64,000 nt of DNA. Origin: Schlesneria paludicola DSM 18645. Lineage in GTDB: Bacteria; Planctomycetota; Planctomycetia; Planctomycetales; Planctomycetaceae. Under the pieces are notes generated by a model that was not told the origin of the DNA, did not search any database, and saw only the letters and a list, made by a program, of their open reading frames with translations. The translations under genes were made by a program, and so were the position numbers. This document shows, piece after piece, positions 2,476 to 16,120 of this stretch. The DNA lies in NCBI GenBank assembly GCA_945869955.1, contig CAMBQP010000003.1, positions 1 through 64,000 of the forward strand, given 5' to 3'. The first letter of the stretch is position 1. Each line of letters begins with the position of its first letter.

Positions 2476-2832
2476 TTACGATCATCCTGGTGAAGACGAT
2501 GATCGATTGCCCCAGGTGATCGGTCATGAGCGAGAGTGGGCAACGGCCCCTGCAAAACATTGATCATCGAAAAGTTCAATCGCATTAAAAACAGCATAAA
2601 ACAGAAAAGTTTGACGAAGCGGAAATCGACGGTTCCAATGACTTGCTCATTCGTGCGGGTTTGCGTGAAGGCTGAAATCCACCCCATCAGGCACCTAAAA
2701 TCGGCGGCCGATTCGAATCGTGCTGGACGCTGGACGGATCGGTGGCTAGAACTAAACGAGAATCATTTGTTTACGCACTCGCCCCGTGCCGCAAGGAATG
2801 CGTGTGTGGCCCATATTTTTCAGGAGTTTTTC

Positions 2833-4668
2833 ATGCAGCGAATCATTCTGTTTTTTGTTGTGCTCGGATTGGCGACGATCACACCCCCGACGATCACACC
2901 CCTGTTCGGACAGGCCGATCCCGCGCAACCTCAGGCCGTCAAAGACGCGGCAAAAGCAACCGCGAAAAAACTAACGGTCGGGCATATTGAGTTAAAAGGG
3001 AGCTATTCGGAGGGGGTCGGTGGGGGTGGCCTGTTCAGTGAAGTGGTCGAAACACTGGGTGACGTGCTGCAGCGTCTGAAAAAAGCCGCAAGCGATGAAA
3101 ACCTGGATGCCGTGGTGCTCCACATCGACGGGCCACAGATTGGCTGGGCCAAGCTGCATGAGATTCGGACCGCAATCGGAAAAATCCGACAAAATGGACG
3201 CAAGGTTTACGCCTGGCTGGAAAGCGCTGACACCAAGGACTATTTGCTGGCGTCAGCCTGCGACCAGATCATCATCCCCGAATCCGGGATGATCATGCTC
3301 CCTGGCCTTCGTGCTGAAATCTCGTTCTACAAAAACTTATTCGACATGTTGTCGATCCAGCCGGAAATGTTGCGGGTTGGTGAATTCAAATCGGCGGCAG
3401 AACCGTACAGCCGCACCGAGATGAGTCCCGCTTTCCGCGAGGAAATGGAAGCGATCATCAACGATTACTACCGTCAGATCGTCGAAATGGTCGCGGCATC
3501 ACGCAAACTGACTCCCGAGCAGGTCACGGCAATTATCGATACAGGATTGTTCTCGGCAGACGACGCCAAAAAGCAGGGACTGATTGACCATGTGGCCTAT
3601 GAAGATCACATCTTGAACTTAGTCAAGGGTGATCAGAAAGAGGCGGAAGTGAAATTGGTCAAGACATACGGCAAAAAAAAGATCGATACCGATTTCAGCG
3701 GCTTTGCCGGGATGGCGAAAATGATGAACATGCTTACTGGGGTCGAGCCGGCGACAAGAAAGTCGACCAATGCCAAAATTGCCGTGATCAGTGCGGTTGG
3801 GCCCATCATGTCGGGTTCGAGTCAGAGCGACTTTTTTGGCGATGAAACCATGGGCTCGACCACCATGATCAAGGCGATTCGGCAGGCACGAGATGACTCG
3901 ACAGTGAAAGCGGTTGTTTTGCGAGTCGATAGCCCAGGCGGGAGCGCTTTGGCGAGCGATCTGATGTGGCATGAACTGGAAACATTGGACGGTAAGAAGC
4001 CCCTGATCGTCAGCATGGGAGACACGGCGGCGAGCGGCGGTTACTACATCGCCATGGGGGCCGATCGGATCTTTGCGGAACCCGGGACGTTAACCGGGTC
4101 GATCGGGGTTGTCGGTGGCAAAATCGCACTTGAAAAATTTTATGCCAAAATCGGGATTACCACGAGTGTCGTACAGAAGGGGAAAAATGCAGGAGTGCTC
4201 AGCACCACCAAAGCCTGGACCGACACCGAGCGCGATGCGATGCAGAAAATGATGAACGATATTTACGCACAGTTCACGAAAAAGGCGGCCACCGGTCGCA
4301 AGATGGAATACGAAAAGCTGGAAAAAATGGCTCGGGGACGTGTTTACACGGGTGTCCAAGCTTTGGCATTGGGGTTGGTTGATGAACTGGGGACGCTTGA
4401 CGATGCCATCGCTCATGCGAAAAAAGCGGCAGGAATTGACCCGGAGACCAAATTGGAACGGCTGAATCTCCCCAAAGCCACCAGTCCCATCGAAGCGTTG
4501 TTTGGCCCACTGGATCCGACGGCACGATTGGGATCAGAAATCACGAAATCATGGCTCAATCGACTTCCCGACGAGATTTCATCTCAATTAAAGGCTCTTG
4601 AGGTATATGATATCCTGGCACAAGAGAAATTTTTGACTGTGATGCCATACCAACTGATCATCAAATGA
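2833..4668 (+). CDS. sppA: signal peptide peptidase SppA, 67K-like with two S49 domains
   Basis: ORF track starts at 2536, but MQRIILFFVVLGLATI at 2833 is a good signal peptide start; LRVDSPGGSALASD and SMGDTAASGGYYIAMGADRIFAEPGTLTGSIGVVGG motifs. Confidence 0.88.
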   Translation: MQRIILFFVVLGLATITPPTITPLFGQADPAQPQAVKDAAKATAKKLTVGHIELKGSYSEGVGGGGLFSEVVETLGDVLQRLKKAASDENLDAVVLHIDGPQIGWAKLHEIRTAIGKIRQNGRKVYAWLESADTKDYLLASACDQIIIPESGMIMLPGLRAEISFYKNLFDMLSIQPEMLRVGEFKSAAEPYSRTEMSPAFREEMEAIINDYYRQIVEMVAASRKLTPEQVTAIIDTGLFSADDAKKQGLIDHVAYEDHILNLVKGDQKEAEVKLVKTYGKKKIDTDFSGFAGMAKMMNMLTGVEPATRKSTNAKIAVISAVGPIMSGSSQSDFFGDETMGSTTMIKAIRQARDDSTVKAVVLRVDSPGGSALASDLMWHELETLDGKKPLIVSMGDTAASGGYYIAMGADRIFAEPGTLTGSIGVVGGKIALEKFYAKIGITTSVVQKGKNAGVLSTTKAWTDTERDAMQKMMNDIYAQFTKKAATGRKMEYEKLEKMARGRVYTGVQALALGLVDELGTLDDAIAHAKKAAGIDPETKLERLNLPKATSPIEALFGPLDPTARLGSEITKSWLNRLPDEISSQLKALEVYDILAQEKFLTVMPYQLIIK

Positions 4669-4823: not shown

Positions 4824-5513
4824 ATGAGTGGTTCATGGGTGAAGACGAAGCCGTCTCAGCGAGCCCGCAGCGGATTCACGTTAGTGGAGATGCTGCTGGT
4901 GCTGGGGGTGTTCATTGTCTTTGCCGGGATCACCATCCCCTCTGTCATGCGGATGTTTGGCCAGCAAAAGCTAACCCATGCCGCAGAACGGGTGCGGGAA
5001 TCGGTTGCCAGTGCTCGATTTCGTGCGATTGATACGGGGCTGATTTATCAATTTTGTTGCGAATCCGGCGGCAGCCGTTTTGTGGTTGTGCCGTTTGAGC
5101 CGGACCATCCGGTGACAGGAGGGTCGGGTCCGGCGGCTCCCGTGACTTTACAGGGGCGATCCTGGGGGCAACTTCCGCAAGGAATTGTGTTTAGTTCGGT
5201 CGGCTTGAACTCGGCGTTGCCGACTACTTCCACGCCGACTAGTTCCACGCCGACCACTTCCACGCGGGCGACGACAACCCTCTCGACCGCTCCCACGCAC
5301 AAATTGGCTGCGGGGGCACTCGACGGACTTCCCAATGCGGGGGAATTGGCGGCAGCAAATTGGTCAGTACCGATCTTGTTTCATCCCGAAGGGACTGCCA
5401 ACGCCGATCTGGAAATCACCGTCAGTGACTCCAAGTCTCAGCAGATCAAATTGCGGGTTCGAGCCTTCACCGGTGCGGTCAGTATGGAACGACTGGCGGT
5501 GGGGAAACGATGA
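4824..5513 (+). CDS. type II secretion / pseudopilin protein, GspH-like
   Basis: prepilin leader RARSG^FTLVEMLLVLGVFIVFAGI; ends in an ATGA overlap with the next gene. Confidence 0.8.
   Translation: MSGSWVKTKPSQRARSGFTLVEMLLVLGVFIVFAGITIPSVMRMFGQQKLTHAAERVRESVASARFRAIDTGLIYQFCCESGGSRFVVVPFEPDHPVTGGSGPAAPVTLQGRSWGQLPQGIVFSSVGLNSALPTTSTPTSSTPTTSTRATTTLSTAPTHKLAAGALDGLPNAGELAAANWSVPILFHPEGTANADLEITVSDSKSQQIKLRVRAFTGAVSMERLAVGKR
5220..5264 (+). repeat. 15-bp x3 tandem repeat encoding a Thr/Ser/Pro linker
   Basis: ccgactacttccacg / ccgactagttccacg / ccgaccacttccacg inside the GspH-like CDS. Confidence 0.8.
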
Positions 5514-5971
5514 TCCGGATGCAAAACCGTCCAGCAGCGGGAAACCCTCGATCGGGGCTGACGTTATTGGAAATCGTCTTGTCATTGACCATTTTTTTTG
5601 CATCGATGGCAGCATTGTCACAGTTGGCCACGAATGGAACTCGTGCGACGGTCCTCGCCCGTTTGAAGACGCAGGCGACGATTCGGTGTGAAACGAAACT
5701 GAATGAAATTCTGGCCGGGGCGGAAGCGATGCAATCCAAATCGGGGGCCTCATTTCCGGATGACAGCCACTGGACCTGGAGTCTGGTGGTGACACCGAGT
5801 AGCTATTCGGACTTGATGCAACTGGATGTGACCGCAAGCCATCGGGGGAGTAGTCGCTTGGCAAGCGTTGATGTGACATTACGGCGGTGGGCGCGTCAGC
5901 AGGCCGTTTTCATCAAGGGAGTGACGCAGGAAAAACAAGAAGAAGAAAAAGCGGAGGCTCGTACACAATGA
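5510..5971 (+). CDS. pseudopilin, GspI-like
   Basis: prepilin leader RSG^LTLLEIVLSLTIFFASMAALSQLA; ATGA overlaps at both ends. Confidence 0.78.
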   Translation: MIRMQNRPAAGNPRSGLTLLEIVLSLTIFFASMAALSQLATNGTRATVLARLKTQATIRCETKLNEILAGAEAMQSKSGASFPDDSHWTWSLVVTPSSYSDLMQLDVTASHRGSSRLASVDVTLRRWARQQAVFIKGVTQEKQEEEKAEARTQ

Positions 5972-7170
5972 ACCCCTTCGTCCGCTCCCGACGGCCCGCT
6001 TCCCGATTGCCTCTTGCAGCGGGGGCTCAACAACGGACTCGCATCCACTCGTGGGGAGTCTCGCTCATGAATTTCCGTACCGCTCGTCTCGAGGCGAACC
6101 CTTTCAAGTCTGTTCCTCATAGGGCGTTGGGAAATCGAACTGGGGTGCGACAGGTATTCGCCAGATCGGCTTTTACTCTATTGGAAACCATCCTCGCTCT
6201 TTCGCTCTCTGCATTGCTACTGGGTGCCATTTTCACGGCGATTGATCAATCCTGGCGCACATCAGCCAGCGGTCGTGAAGAGATGGAACGGGCTCAATTG
6301 GCCCGTGCACTGATCCACCGAATTGAAGTCGATATCCGAGCGATCACGTATATTGCGCCACCTCCGGTGGAGGAAACTACGGATGCCAGTACCACATCCT
6401 CGTCAAGCACCGGCGGTAGTAGCGGCGGTAGTGGTAGTAGCAGCGGTAGTGGTAGTAGCGGCGGTAGTGGTAGTAGGAGCAGTAGTGGCGGCGGAGCGAG
6501 TGGTGGAAGTAGCGGCGGAAAAAGCGGCGGCGGAGGGAGTAGCGGAGGAGGCAAGTCTGGTTCCGGGAGCAGTGGAGGAAGTTTTGGAGGTTTTGCAGCG
6601 GCAAGTTCCTCGTCCCCGACCTCTTCGACAGCGGCGACCGATACCTCTGCGACCACAGAAGAGACGGGTCCGAATTCCAAAAGCATTGGAATTCGAGGAA
6701 CAATCCAGTCGTTTGAGATCAGTATTGCCCGGCCACGACGTGACCTGCTGCCGACGAGTGCCGGAGCAGCCACGGTGCGGACGAGCGATCTGAGGCAGGT
6801 TTCTTACAGTTTTCTTCCCCCCGGCACCTCGTCCACCTCCGGATTGATTCGAACCGAAGGAGATCGGATGGCGGTGGAAGCGGTCGAGGCCAATGGGGCT
6901 GCGGCAAGTCAGATTTCCAGTTCCCAAATACTGGCACCCGAGGTCGCCACATTTCGTGTGCGCTACTTTGATGGCACCACTTGGCTGGAAACCTGGGATT
7001 CGGACACCATTGGTCGTATTCCGCGCGCGGTCGAAGTGACGATTTCCTTTCTGCCTCCCAAACGAAAGCCACCCATTTTTAACGTGGCGGTCAGCAAATC
7101 CATGAATTCCTTTCGCACGGTGGTACTGATTCCCGTTTCCGACCCTTATCCGAAAGAGTTGGTCGAATGA
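5968..7170 (+). CDS. pseudopilin, GspJ-like, with Ser/Gly low-complexity insert
   Basis: RSA^FTLLETILALSLSALLLGAIFTAIDQSW; ORF track start 5887 moved to ATG 5968, giving an ATGA overlap with the upstream gene. Confidence 0.75.
   Translation: MNPFVRSRRPASRLPLAAGAQQRTRIHSWGVSLMNFRTARLEANPFKSVPHRALGNRTGVRQVFARSAFTLLETILALSLSALLLGAIFTAIDQSWRTSASGREEMERAQLARALIHRIEVDIRAITYIAPPPVEETTDASTTSSSSTGGSSGGSGSSSGSGSSGGSGSRSSSGGGASGGSSGGKSGGGGSSGGGKSGSGSSGGSFGGFAAASSSSPTSSTAATDTSATTEETGPNSKSIGIRGTIQSFEISIARPRRDLLPTSAGAATVRTSDLRQVSYSFLPPGTSSTSGLIRTEGDRMAVEAVEANGAAASQISSSQILAPEVATFRVRYFDGTTWLETWDSDTIGRIPRAVEVTISFLPPKRKPPIFNVAVSKSMNSFRTVVLIPVSDPYPKELVE
6397..6597 (+). repeat. Ser/Gly low-complexity coding repeat (AGT/GGT/GGC-rich)
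   Basis: translates as SSSTGGSSGGSGSSSGSGSSGGSGSRSSSGGGASGGSSGGKSGGGGSSGGGKSGSGSSGG. Confidence 0.9.
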
Positions 7171-8921
7171 AACACGGGACACCCATGATTGGACGTCAAC
7201 CGGCAAGAGATCGCCTGCGTGAGCTCACGACGAAATCCTCGGCGGCACGCTGGGGGAGTGTGCTGCTGCTGGTGATTGTGGTGATCGCCATGCTGACGTT
7301 GTCGGCATACAACTTTGCCCAGACCATGACGACGGAACTCGAAGCGGCGTCAATGTACACGCTGGACGTACAATCACGTGCAACAGCGGATTCGGGGGTC
7401 GAATTTGTGGCCACAATGCTCGGCAGCCGACAAACACTGGTGGCGGAAAACCTGATCCACAATCCGCAGATCTTCATGGGACAAGTTGTGTCCCCCTCGC
7501 CCCATTTGCGAGCCAATAGCCGGTTCACGGTGATTGCTCCGGTGGAACATGACACAAAGACGAATTCGATCCGTTATGGCTTGATGGACGAGTCCAGCAA
7601 ATTAAATCTCAACTTTCTTCCTAATATGGGACTGAGTAACGATGAGTTGAATACGTTGTTAATGAAGGTTCCCGGCGTAACGATTGAGATCGCCGATGCG
7701 ATCCTGGATTGGATCGATTCGGATGACACCAAAAATCCCTACGGAGCCGAATCCGAAACTTACCAGCAAATGAATCCCCCCTATCAAGCCAAAAATGGCC
7801 CGTTGGAAACGATGGATGAATTGTTGCTGGTGAACGGAATTACCCCCACGCTGCTGTATGGAGAAGACGCCAATCGAAATGGATTGCTGGATCCGAATGA
7901 AAACGATGGGGACGCAAGCCCCCCCATGGATAACGCCGACGGTGTACTCGATCATGGGTTCATTGCGTATTTTTCGGTACACGGACGAGAATCGAATCGT
8001 CGAAAAACAGGAACGCTGAAAATCAATGTCAATGATGGGTTTCTCACGGATCTCTATGACAACCTGGTTGAGGCGTTTGACGAAGATACCGCCAAATTTG
8101 TGATTGCCTTCCGAATCAGTGGCCCCGCAACCCCCGTGGAAGAGTCAAAAACCAACCCCGTCGTTCCGCCGACATCACCCACATCATCCACTTCATCGAC
8201 CTCCTCAACCTCGTCCACATCCTCCACTCCGGTTTCATCCGGTCAATCGATCCAGGAAAAACAGGCGGCAGAGAGTCTGTCTCAGTTTCTGGCTTCGATG
8301 GCGAAATCCGGAGGAACCGTGACCCGTGGCGGAATCGACCTTTCAAAGGGGGGGAAAACCTCGATCGAATCCCTGTGGTCCTTGATTGGAACTTCGGCCA
8401 AAATCTCGATCGATGGAACGCCAACCACTCTGAAAAGTCCGTGGTCGGATGACGTTTCTTCCATCTCGACCGTATACCCGGATATGATGGATAAATTGAC
8501 GACTACGAAGGAGGAATACCTGGAAGGTCGGATCAACATCAACCAGGCAAGACGTGAGGTTTTGCTGGGATTGCCGACGATGACCGAAGAAATTGTCAAT
8601 AATATTATTGCCGCGCAGCGCCTCGATTCGAATGGCCAACCTTCGCTCGACACGATCCGCCAACACAACTCCACCGCTTGGCTTTATTCCGAAAACCTGG
8701 TCGACCTGCCAGGAATGATTACGCTGGATCCCTATATCACCGCGCATGGTGATGTATATCGGGTTCAGGTATTGGGGTTCTTTGATGGTGGTGGTCCAGT
8801 CTCTCGACTCGAAGCCTTAATCGACGCCACGAAACTTCCACCCCGAATCATCTCGCAGCGAGACCTGAACGAGCTGGGCCGCGGATATACAAGGAGTCAG
8901 TTGTTGCAGGTGGTGAAATAG
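7167..8921 (+). CDS. general secretion pathway protein GspK-like
   Basis: N-terminal TM after basic leader (WGSVLLLVIVVIAMLTLSAYNFAQTM), DESSKLNLNFL, AILDWIDSDD, GRININQARREVLLGLP, as in T2SS GspK. Confidence 0.85.
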   Translation: MKHGTPMIGRQPARDRLRELTTKSSAARWGSVLLLVIVVIAMLTLSAYNFAQTMTTELEAASMYTLDVQSRATADSGVEFVATMLGSRQTLVAENLIHNPQIFMGQVVSPSPHLRANSRFTVIAPVEHDTKTNSIRYGLMDESSKLNLNFLPNMGLSNDELNTLLMKVPGVTIEIADAILDWIDSDDTKNPYGAESETYQQMNPPYQAKNGPLETMDELLLVNGITPTLLYGEDANRNGLLDPNENDGDASPPMDNADGVLDHGFIAYFSVHGRESNRRKTGTLKINVNDGFLTDLYDNLVEAFDEDTAKFVIAFRISGPATPVEESKTNPVVPPTSPTSSTSSTSSTSSTSSTPVSSGQSIQEKQAAESLSQFLASMAKSGGTVTRGGIDLSKGGKTSIESLWSLIGTSAKISIDGTPTTLKSPWSDDVSSISTVYPDMMDKLTTTKEEYLEGRININQARREVLLGLPTMTEEIVNNIIAAQRLDSNGQPSLDTIRQHNSTAWLYSENLVDLPGMITLDPYITAHGDVYRVQVLGFFDGGGPVSRLEALIDATKLPPRIISQRDLNELGRGYTRSQLLQVVK

Positions 8922-15268: not shown

Positions 15269-16120
15269 TCAATCAGGTCGACGTGGCCGTTCGGGACGGT
15301 CACCACCCTCATTTTGACGACCACCTCCGGGAGGCCCCCCTGCACCACCCCGTGGCCCGCGAACTCCTGGGCCTTCACCACCGGGTCCGCCCGGCCCACC
15401 TGGGCCTTCCTGTCCTGGATGGCGCTTAACGAAGTCATCAATAAATTTTTGCAGTTCGTCTTTATCGAGCTTTCCATCTTTGTCCGCGTCAAATTCTAAC
15501 GCGTGATTCAACATCCGCTCTGGGTTCACCGTTCCCCCACCCTCAGGTCCACCTGGTCCTCTCCCCGGACCGCCTGGTCCACCCGGAGCACCTGGGCCAC
15601 GAGCACCTCGAATGCCACCAGGAGGCCCCCCTTCAGGCGGACCTGCTTCCCCACCACGGCCGCGACCTCCCCCTGGTGCGCCACCCCCAGGTCCACCCGG
15701 TCCACCGCCCCCCTGACGACCTCGACCCGGTCCGCCCGGTCCGCCTGGTCCACCATCCGGTCCACCCGGTCCGCCGCCTCCCTGACGACCACCACCGGGC
15801 CCACCACCGGGACCACCGGGACCACCGGGACCACCTTGCGGACGAAACTCGTCCTCGGTCAGTTTTCCATCTTTGTTCTTGTCGAGAGCGTTTAACGAAG
15901 CGGTCGCACTTTTTAATTCTTCGGCAGAAATTTCTCCGTCATGATCGGTATCCAGGGCTTCGATCACGGGGTTGGGCCTGCGTCCTCCCGGTCCTCCCGG
16001 TCCTCCCGGTCCTCCTTGGCCGGGTGCCCCCGGTGGTCCGGGGGGAATCGGCGGTTGCGCCATCACCAGCGTTGCCCCCGCAACAACCACGGCAGCCAGT
16101 CCCCACATTGTTCGTTTCAT
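15269..16120 (-). CDS. EF-hand domain protein with extensive Gly/Pro (collagen-like GGP) repeats, secreted
   Basis: signal peptide; EF-hand loops DTDHDGEISAEE, DKNKDGKLTEDE, DADKDGKLDKDE; long GGPGGPGG tracts. Confidence 0.85.
   Translation of the reverse strand: MKRTMWGLAAVVVAGATLVMAQPPIPPGPPGAPGQGGPGGPGGPGGRRPNPVIEALDTDHDGEISAEELKSATASLNALDKNKDGKLTEDEFRPQGGPGGPGGPGGGPGGGRQGGGGPGGPDGGPGGPGGPGRGRQGGGGPGGPGGGAPGGGRGRGGEAGPPEGGPPGGIRGARGPGAPGGPGGPGRGPGGPEGGGTVNPERMLNHALEFDADKDGKLDKDELQKFIDDFVKRHPGQEGPGGPGGPGGEGPGVRGPRGGAGGPPGGGRQNEGGDRPERPRRPD

What the first reader, a model, noticed from the sequence alone, without database searches (positions are those of the whole stretch)
4824..8921. Translationally coupled GspH/I/J/K-like pseudopilin operon with low-complexity linkers in three of four proteins
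Three consecutive junctions (5510-5513, 5968-5971, 7167-7170) are the same 4-bp ATGA stop/start overlap. The GspH-like protein carries a Thr/Ser/Pro linker, the GspJ-like a ~60-aa Ser/Gly tract and the GspK-like a (TSS)n tract; the GspI-like has none. No gspD, E, F or G lies in the window. GspH-I-J-K form the pseudopilus tip in canonical T2SS, so a tip-only operon with flexible, possibly glycosylated, linkers is a plausible variant. That function is inference.
Basis: partly seen in the sequence, partly recalled or inferred. Interest (0 to 1): 0.62.

Follow-up and report, generated by a model that had tools for sequence, protein, structure and literature searches.

The report
Tip genes of a scattered secretion system
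The four genes make the tip of a type II protein-secretion machine that nearly every sampled bacterium of this planctomycete family keeps; in most it is encoded in one gene cluster, but in this genus the cluster has broken into seven or so pieces across the chromosome and the four tip genes have stayed together.

Summary
In detail: four genes at 4824-8921 encode GspH-, GspI-, GspJ- and GspK-like pseudopilins joined by three ATGA overlaps, with Ser/Thr/Gly-rich tracts in H, J and K. The 'tip-only operon' reading needs changing. GspK of this type occurs in 119 of 120 genomes of the order. In many other genera it sits inside a full operon: a barrel-less secretin-like gene, then E-F-G-H-I-J-K-L-M-D and a lipoprotein gene. 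In the window's genus that same system ('type A') is complete but scattered: over seven contigs here, and over 0.7-5.4 Mb of a one-contig genome of the same genus (gspG not located there). A second, contiguous T2SS ('type B') with its own H-K also exists; the window's K is not from that one. When the operon breaks, H-I-J-K stays joined in 37 of 38 loci, while the K-L, G-H and M-D joints break often. Four-base overlaps, above all I/J, also occur in intact operons. The tracts are repeat-expanded disordered loops: J's at a conserved place, K's in a variable loop, H's nearly specific to this genome. A scattered T2SS is known from Legionella. New variant of a known kind, moderately interesting.

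The parts
4824..5513 (+). gspH-like minor pseudopilin gene, 229 aa; Thr/Ser/Pro tract at residues 123-160
   Evidence: GFTLVE motif; Pfam N_methyl 21.3 bits over the cut-off and GspH 19.6 just under it; family alignment A1
5510..5971 (+). gspI-like minor pseudopilin gene, 153 aa, no low-complexity tract
   Evidence: TIGR01707 gspI E 8e-8, below cut-off; GLTLLE motif; profile found a GspI-type relative in 59 of 62 genomes
5968..7170 (+). gspJ-like minor pseudopilin gene, 400 aa; long leader before AFTLLE; Ser/Gly tract at residues 130-235
   Evidence: Pfam T2SSJ over cut-off; PDB profile hit EpsJ 1e-5; model matches EpsJ and XcpW; tract predicted disordered, pLDDT under 50
7167..8921 (+). gspK-like tip pseudopilin gene, 584 aa, no Glu5; (TSS)n tract at residues 325-365 between its two helix-hairpin-helix/SAM-like parts
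   Evidence: Pfam T2SSK_1st 63.5 bits; NCBIfam T2SS_GspK E 1e-22, below cut-off; PDB profile hits XcpX and GspK; model matches them, Foldseek probability 1.00; residues 336-361 disordered
5510..5513 (+). H/I ATGA stop-start overlap
5968..5971 (+). I/J ATGA stop-start overlap, the most conserved of the three across the family
7167..7170 (+). J/K ATGA stop-start overlap
2794..4668 (+). SppA-like S49 peptidase gene upstream, the same neighbour in most of the same-genus genomes fetched; not part of the T2SS
   Evidence: Pfam Peptidase_S49 266 bits; neighbour in L064-L070

Best explanation
The operon encodes the minor-pseudopilin tip complex (GspH-I-J-K) of a complete T2SS, here called type A, that is nearly universal in this planctomycete family and whose once contiguous operon has been broken up in this genus. 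Shown: family and fold of J and K, the intact operon in other genera, the scattered but complete set here, the joint-by-joint pattern of breakage, and purifying selection on the four genes. Inferred from studied T2SSs: I, J and K form a complex in the inner membrane that starts and caps the pseudopilus, H joins it to the GspG filament, and GspE, F, L and M drive the filament to push folded proteins out through the GspD secretin. Also inferred: H-I-J-K stay coupled because the complex needs matched amounts of its parts, whereas the other modules tolerate separate expression. The Ser/Thr/Gly tracts are read as flexible surface loops lengthened by repeat slippage, not as the defining novelty.
For: Type-A K is in 119 of 120 genomes at roughly 40-78% identity over the main matches. 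Intact clusters running from the Secretin_N gene through E-F-G-H-I-J-K-L-M to D occur in G016, G012, G036, G002, G062, G102, G051, G014 and the Red Sea genome L034; G023 is similar. In the own genome E is on C4 (68% to the intact-operon E against 56% for type B), F on C121, G on C66, L-M on C19, D plus lipoprotein on C226, the Secretin_N gene on C60, H-I-J-K on C3. In the one-contig genome G053 of the same genus they lie at 0.72, 2.67, 3.59, 4.57, 4.60 and 5.42 Mb, and the type-B cluster is contiguous at 6.33-6.35 Mb. G025 is intermediate: Secretin_N gene-E-F-G-H-I-J-K together, L-M and D elsewhere. Joints kept/broken: H-I 36/0, I-J 36/0, J-K 37/1, against G-H 24/12, K-L 20/17, M-D 10/7. The window's K groups with type A and type B is a separate starred branch. 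Scattered parts score best as GspE, GspF, GspG and GspD, not as type IV pilus homologues. dN/dS of H, I, J, K between two close relatives is about 0.14, 0.06, 0.13 and 0.07 (my division).
Against: Nothing shows that the scattered parts work together; the link rests on descent from a shared operon and on co-retention. No GspC was recognised in the operon, and genome-wide GspC and the prepilin peptidase were not searched. H and I fall below curated cut-offs. Support for type A as one clade is 77, not starred. The joint counts are anchored on K, so they favour genes near K. In G034, a complete genome, K is separate and I lies 5 Mb away, so the tip genes can be split.
Confidence: 0.86

Rival explanations
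1. The H-I-J-K set is a spare tip that plugs into the type-B T2SS of the same genome, giving it an alternative tip and substrate range.
For: A contiguous T2SS with E, F, G, L and M exists on C13, so the machinery for a shared filament is present. Pseudopilins of related systems can cross-assemble (general knowledge).
Against: Type B has its own H-I-J-K. The window's K is 34% identical to the C13 K but about 40-50% to K of intact type-A operons. Type-A E, F, G, L, M and D are all present. Several same-genus genomes carry H-I-J-K with no type-B match at this threshold, e.g. G038, G045, G047, G070.
Confidence: 0.06
2. Type A is not a secretion system but builds a surface filament, for example the pili-like fibres of planctomycete crateriform structures, with H-I-J-K as its adhesive or glycan-binding tip and the long linkers as spacers.
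For: Planctomycetes carry crateriform structures with 12-nm fibres that bind dextran (PMC5394234). D is very long (5-6 Secretin_N domains) and is joined by a second Secretin_N protein, which could suit a wide periplasm. GspM in the intact operon carries Ig-like domains.
Against: A separate type IV pilus set (PilB-, PilT- and PilC-like) lies on C34. The major pilin-like protein is GspG-like with the T2SSG domain, and E, F and D all score best as T2SS proteins. No adhesin domain was seen in H-I-J-K.
Confidence: 0.12
3. The operon is a decaying remnant and the tracts are signs of relaxed constraint.
For: The tracts are tandem-repeat expansions and vary strongly between close relatives.
Against: All reading frames are intact, dN/dS is well below 1 between close relatives, all other parts are retained, and the tracts sit in predicted disordered loops.
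Confidence: 0.02

Closest known systems
Canonical T2SS GspH-I-J-K (E. coli GspK-I-J 3CI0, P. aeruginosa XcpVWX 5VTM, Vibrio EpsI-J 2RET)
   Same: Gene order H-I-J-K; Glu5 in H, I, J and not in K; J and K folds match solved structures
   Different: K and J are much longer; low-complexity loops; sequence scores below or near curated cut-offs; no G, F, E or D next to them
Scattered Lsp T2SS of Legionella pneumophila, five loci (PMC6617341; described as very atypical in PMC4793230)
   Same: A complete T2SS split over distant chromosomal loci, found across a whole genus
   Different: Legionella keeps F-G-H-I-J-K together; here H-I-J-K is alone and E, F and G are each separate. Legionella has LspC; no GspC was recognised in the operon here
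Type-B T2SS of the same genome (C13, with C25)
   Same: E-F-G-H-I-J-K-L-M order; the same kind of D plus lipoprotein plus Secretin_N protein
   Different: Contiguous in G053, sporadic among relatives, K only 34% identical
Type IVa pilus machinery on C34
   Same: Homologous ATPase and platform protein
   Different: Separate locus with PilT; type-A E and F score higher as GspE and GspF

Membership tests
T2SS minor pseudopilin tip operon (GspH-I-J-K) | Prepilin signal and hydrophobic helix in all four, Glu5 in H, I, J and absent in K | tested here: met
   Motifs in the window and in relatives
T2SS minor pseudopilin tip operon (GspH-I-J-K) | GspK with the extra SAM-like/helix-hairpin-helix parts | tested here: met
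   T2SSK_1st 63.5 bits and HHH_3; Foldseek 5VTM/3CI0 probability 1.00, TM by target 0.6-0.7
T2SS minor pseudopilin tip operon (GspH-I-J-K) | GspJ fold | tested here: met
   T2SSJ over cut-off; Foldseek EpsJ/XcpW probability 1.00, TM by target about 0.5
T2SS minor pseudopilin tip operon (GspH-I-J-K) | GspH and GspI identity beyond the shared N-terminal helix | tested here: inconclusive
   GspH Pfam 19.6 against 21; gspI NCBIfam 32.7 against 44.35; PDB profile hits for I weak and for H only along the N-terminal helix
T2SS (whole type-A system) | GspE, F, G, D present and nearer to T2SS than to type IV pilus | tested here: met
   Best NCBIfam model is GspE, GspF, GspG and GspD respectively, though each falls under its cut-off
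T2SS (whole type-A system) | GspL and GspM | tested here: inconclusive
   Operon genes at the L and M positions; L matches PilM/PilN weakly, M showed only Ig-like domains
T2SS (whole type-A system) | GspC | tested here: inconclusive
   No GspC match among the operon proteins scanned; not searched genome-wide
T2SS (whole type-A system) | Prepilin peptidase GspO/PilD | not tested
   Not searched
T2SS (whole type-A system) | Secretes folded periplasmic proteins | not testable with these tools
   Needs an experiment
T2SS as usually detected: single locus | Genes co-localised (96.5% of detected T2SS in PMC4793230, whose model required co-localisation) | tested here: not met
   Seven contigs in this genome; six distant places in one-contig G053

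The most novel reading that the evidence does not exclude
Type A is an undescribed planctomycete subtype of T2SS, nearly universal in the family: a very long secretin (5-6 Secretin_N domains) works with a second, barrel-less Secretin_N protein, perhaps to span the wide planctomycete periplasm, with an Ig-domain GspM and no GspC. Its operon breaks up at the borders of its physical sub-assemblies, so the tip complex H-I-J-K, still translationally coupled, is the set that must be made together.
Probability: 0.35. Interest if true: 0.72.

Novelty: new variant of a known kind. Interest (0 to 1): 0.5.

Why it matters
T2SS has been reported as very rare outside Proteobacteria by a search that required clustered genes and set score thresholds (PMC4793230). 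Here a whole planctomycete family carries one whose proteins fall under curated cut-offs and whose genes, in some genera, are scattered, so it would be missed. These bacteria degrade polysaccharides, and a T2SS is an obvious candidate route for their exoenzymes. The graded break-up (intact, G025-like, Schlesneria-like, G034) is a natural experiment on which subunits must be co-expressed, and the answer here, the H-I-J-K tip, can be tested directly.

Tried and rejected
Pfam T2SSK (PF03934) over the genome found nothing, because planctomycete GspK is too divergent in that domain. The genome-contig scan with K gave only 3 relatives; the genome search did far better. Considered and rejected: that the tip set belongs to type B (identity and tree), that it is a type IV pilus minor-pilin set (separate pilus locus, E/F/G/D scores), and that the linkers are unique recent insertions (J tract at the same place in most same-genus genomes). 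Promoter scan of the region gave no more than chance (3 against 2.7), so it says nothing on transcription. Paper searches for a described planctomycete T2SS found none in the held open-access library; most subscription papers are not in it.
Full report
What is there. The four genes at 4824-8921 are as described: H 229, I 153, J 400 and K 584 codons, joined by three ATGA overlaps. Family searches put K firmly in GspK (T2SSK_1st 63.5 bits, cut-off 26.2), J in GspJ (just over the Pfam cut-off), and H and I below cut-off but with the prepilin motif. Glu5 is present in H, I and J and missing in K, as in real tip sets. Profiles built from 24-25 relatives find solved GspK/XcpX (1e-8) and EpsJ (1e-5). 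AlphaFold models made from those alignments match XcpX/GspK (Foldseek E 2e-6 to 1e-4, TM by target 0.6-0.7) and EpsJ/XcpW (TM by target about 0.5).

The genome around it. The genome is a 394-contig draft of 6.25 Mb, 95% complete. Near relatives in a named collection are 'uncultured Schlesneria sp.'; two of those contigs have the same lengths as contigs of genomes G070 and G038, so I take the genus to be Schlesneria-like. A second T2SS operon, E-F-G-H-I-J-K-L-M, lies on contig C13, and its secretin, a lipoprotein and a 1975-aa Secretin_N protein on C25; in the one-contig genome G053 of the same genus these two parts are one cluster at 6.33-6.35 Mb. I call this type B. Its K is 34% identical to the window's.

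The window's set belongs to another system, type A. A K of this kind is present in 119 of 120 genomes of the order (all drawn from one family code). I fetched about 20 kb around K in some 37 genomes and named the genes by similarity. In G016, G012, G036, G002, G051, G062, G102 and G014, and in the Red Sea genome L034, K lies in one operon: Secretin_N gene, E, F, G, H, I, J, K, L, M, D, lipoprotein (in G002 the fetched stretch ends after D; G023 is the same except that the L and M frames as called overlap). In the window's genus (all 10 other genomes whose loci were fetched) and in G015 of genus g9, H-I-J-K stands alone. The other type-A parts are still there: in the own genome E on C4, F on C121, G on C66, L-M on C19, D and lipoprotein on C226, Secretin_N gene on C60. 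In G053 they are spread over 0.7-5.4 Mb of a 7.07-Mb chromosome, so this is not an assembly effect; gspG was not located in G053. G025 shows a half-way state and G034 a fully scattered one, with L and M apart and K apart from I.

Which joints break. Across 38 loci, kept/broken counts were H-I 36/0, I-J 36/0, J-K 37/1, G-H 24/12, K-L 20/17, L-M 16/3, M-D 10/7, D-lipoprotein 9/0. On the K tree the fewest changes are 1 for G-H, 3 for K-L and 4 for M-D. L and M found genome-wide are neighbours in all g1 genomes tested. By my tally, I and K lie within a few kilobases of each other in 48 of the 56 genomes that have both; they are certainly apart in one complete genome (G034) and on different contigs in seven drafts, three of which have one of the genes at a contig end. 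The I/J 4-base overlap recurs in most relatives, intact operons included. So the coupling is inherited from the intact operon, not a new feature of the tip operon.

The tracts. The J tract lies at one place in the alignment (window residues about 125-241). Every relative has at least 37 residues there, but composition runs from Gly/Ser (most of this genus) to acidic (other genera). The K tract lies in a variable region (13-86 residues) between the two SAM-like parts; a few other sequences have a low-complexity stretch at or near it. The H tract is nearly private to this genome: 43 residues where close relatives have 24-29. The DNA is tandemly repeated, which points to slippage. AlphaFold gives pLDDT under 50 in the J and K tracts. 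The simplest reading is tolerated surface loops. Glycosylation is untested.

Mechanism. By established knowledge of T2SS, I-J-K form the initiating and capping complex, H connects to the GspG filament, E/F/L/M drive it and D is the pore. That this type-A set secretes proteins is inferred from homology. Retention is under selection: dN/dS is about 0.06-0.14 for the pair of close relatives whose synonymous sites are not saturated (ratio taken by me).

Membership. The window genes meet the tests for a T2SS tip set (K, J, Glu5 rule); H and I are inconclusive on their own and rest on position. The whole system meets the tests for E, F, G and D by best model, but every one is under its curated cut-off (604 of 630, 365 of 424, 72 of 89, 348.3 of 351.35). 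No GspC was seen in the operon. It fails the single-locus feature used to detect most T2SS (PMC4793230), as the five-locus system of Legionella does (PMC6617341). A statement that many planctomycete genes are not in operons (PMC4807772) fits this trend.

Verdict. A real, functional-looking tip operon of a scattered T2SS; the linkers are a side issue. A new variant of a known kind, with interest mainly in the near-universal planctomycete system and in the pattern of operon break-up.

Noticed in passing
L123:5387-9421 (own contig C60) and first gene of intact operons, e.g. L077:17030-19807: A protein of 925-1344 aa with 4-5 Secretin_N domains and no secretin barrel precedes gspE in intact type-A operons; type B has a 1975-aa counterpart on C25.
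   Followed up: partly
L023:2749-6957, L077:1880-5908: Type-A GspD is 1330-1400 aa with 5-6 Secretin_N domains, and is followed by a conserved lipoprotein-like gene; the own-genome copy has no Pfam match.
   Followed up: partly
L077:6135-7952: The GspM-position protein carries Ig/cadherin-like (He_PIG) domains, unusual for a T2SS platform protein.
   Followed up: partly
window 5968-6170: GspJ has an unusually long leader (about 66 residues) before the prepilin motif; its start at the I/J overlap is conserved in the genus.
   Followed up: partly
L119:7882-11914 (G053): The Secretin_N gene is split into two overlapping reading frames in the one-contig genome G053; frameshift or true split not decided.
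   Followed up: no
L097 (G052 contig C23): A third, more divergent T2SS-like cluster (E-F-G-I-K-L-M-D) in one genome of the same genus.
   Followed up: no
window 15269-16120: A 283-aa minus-strand ORF is largely Gly/Pro-rich repeats (GGPGGPGG).
   Followed up: no
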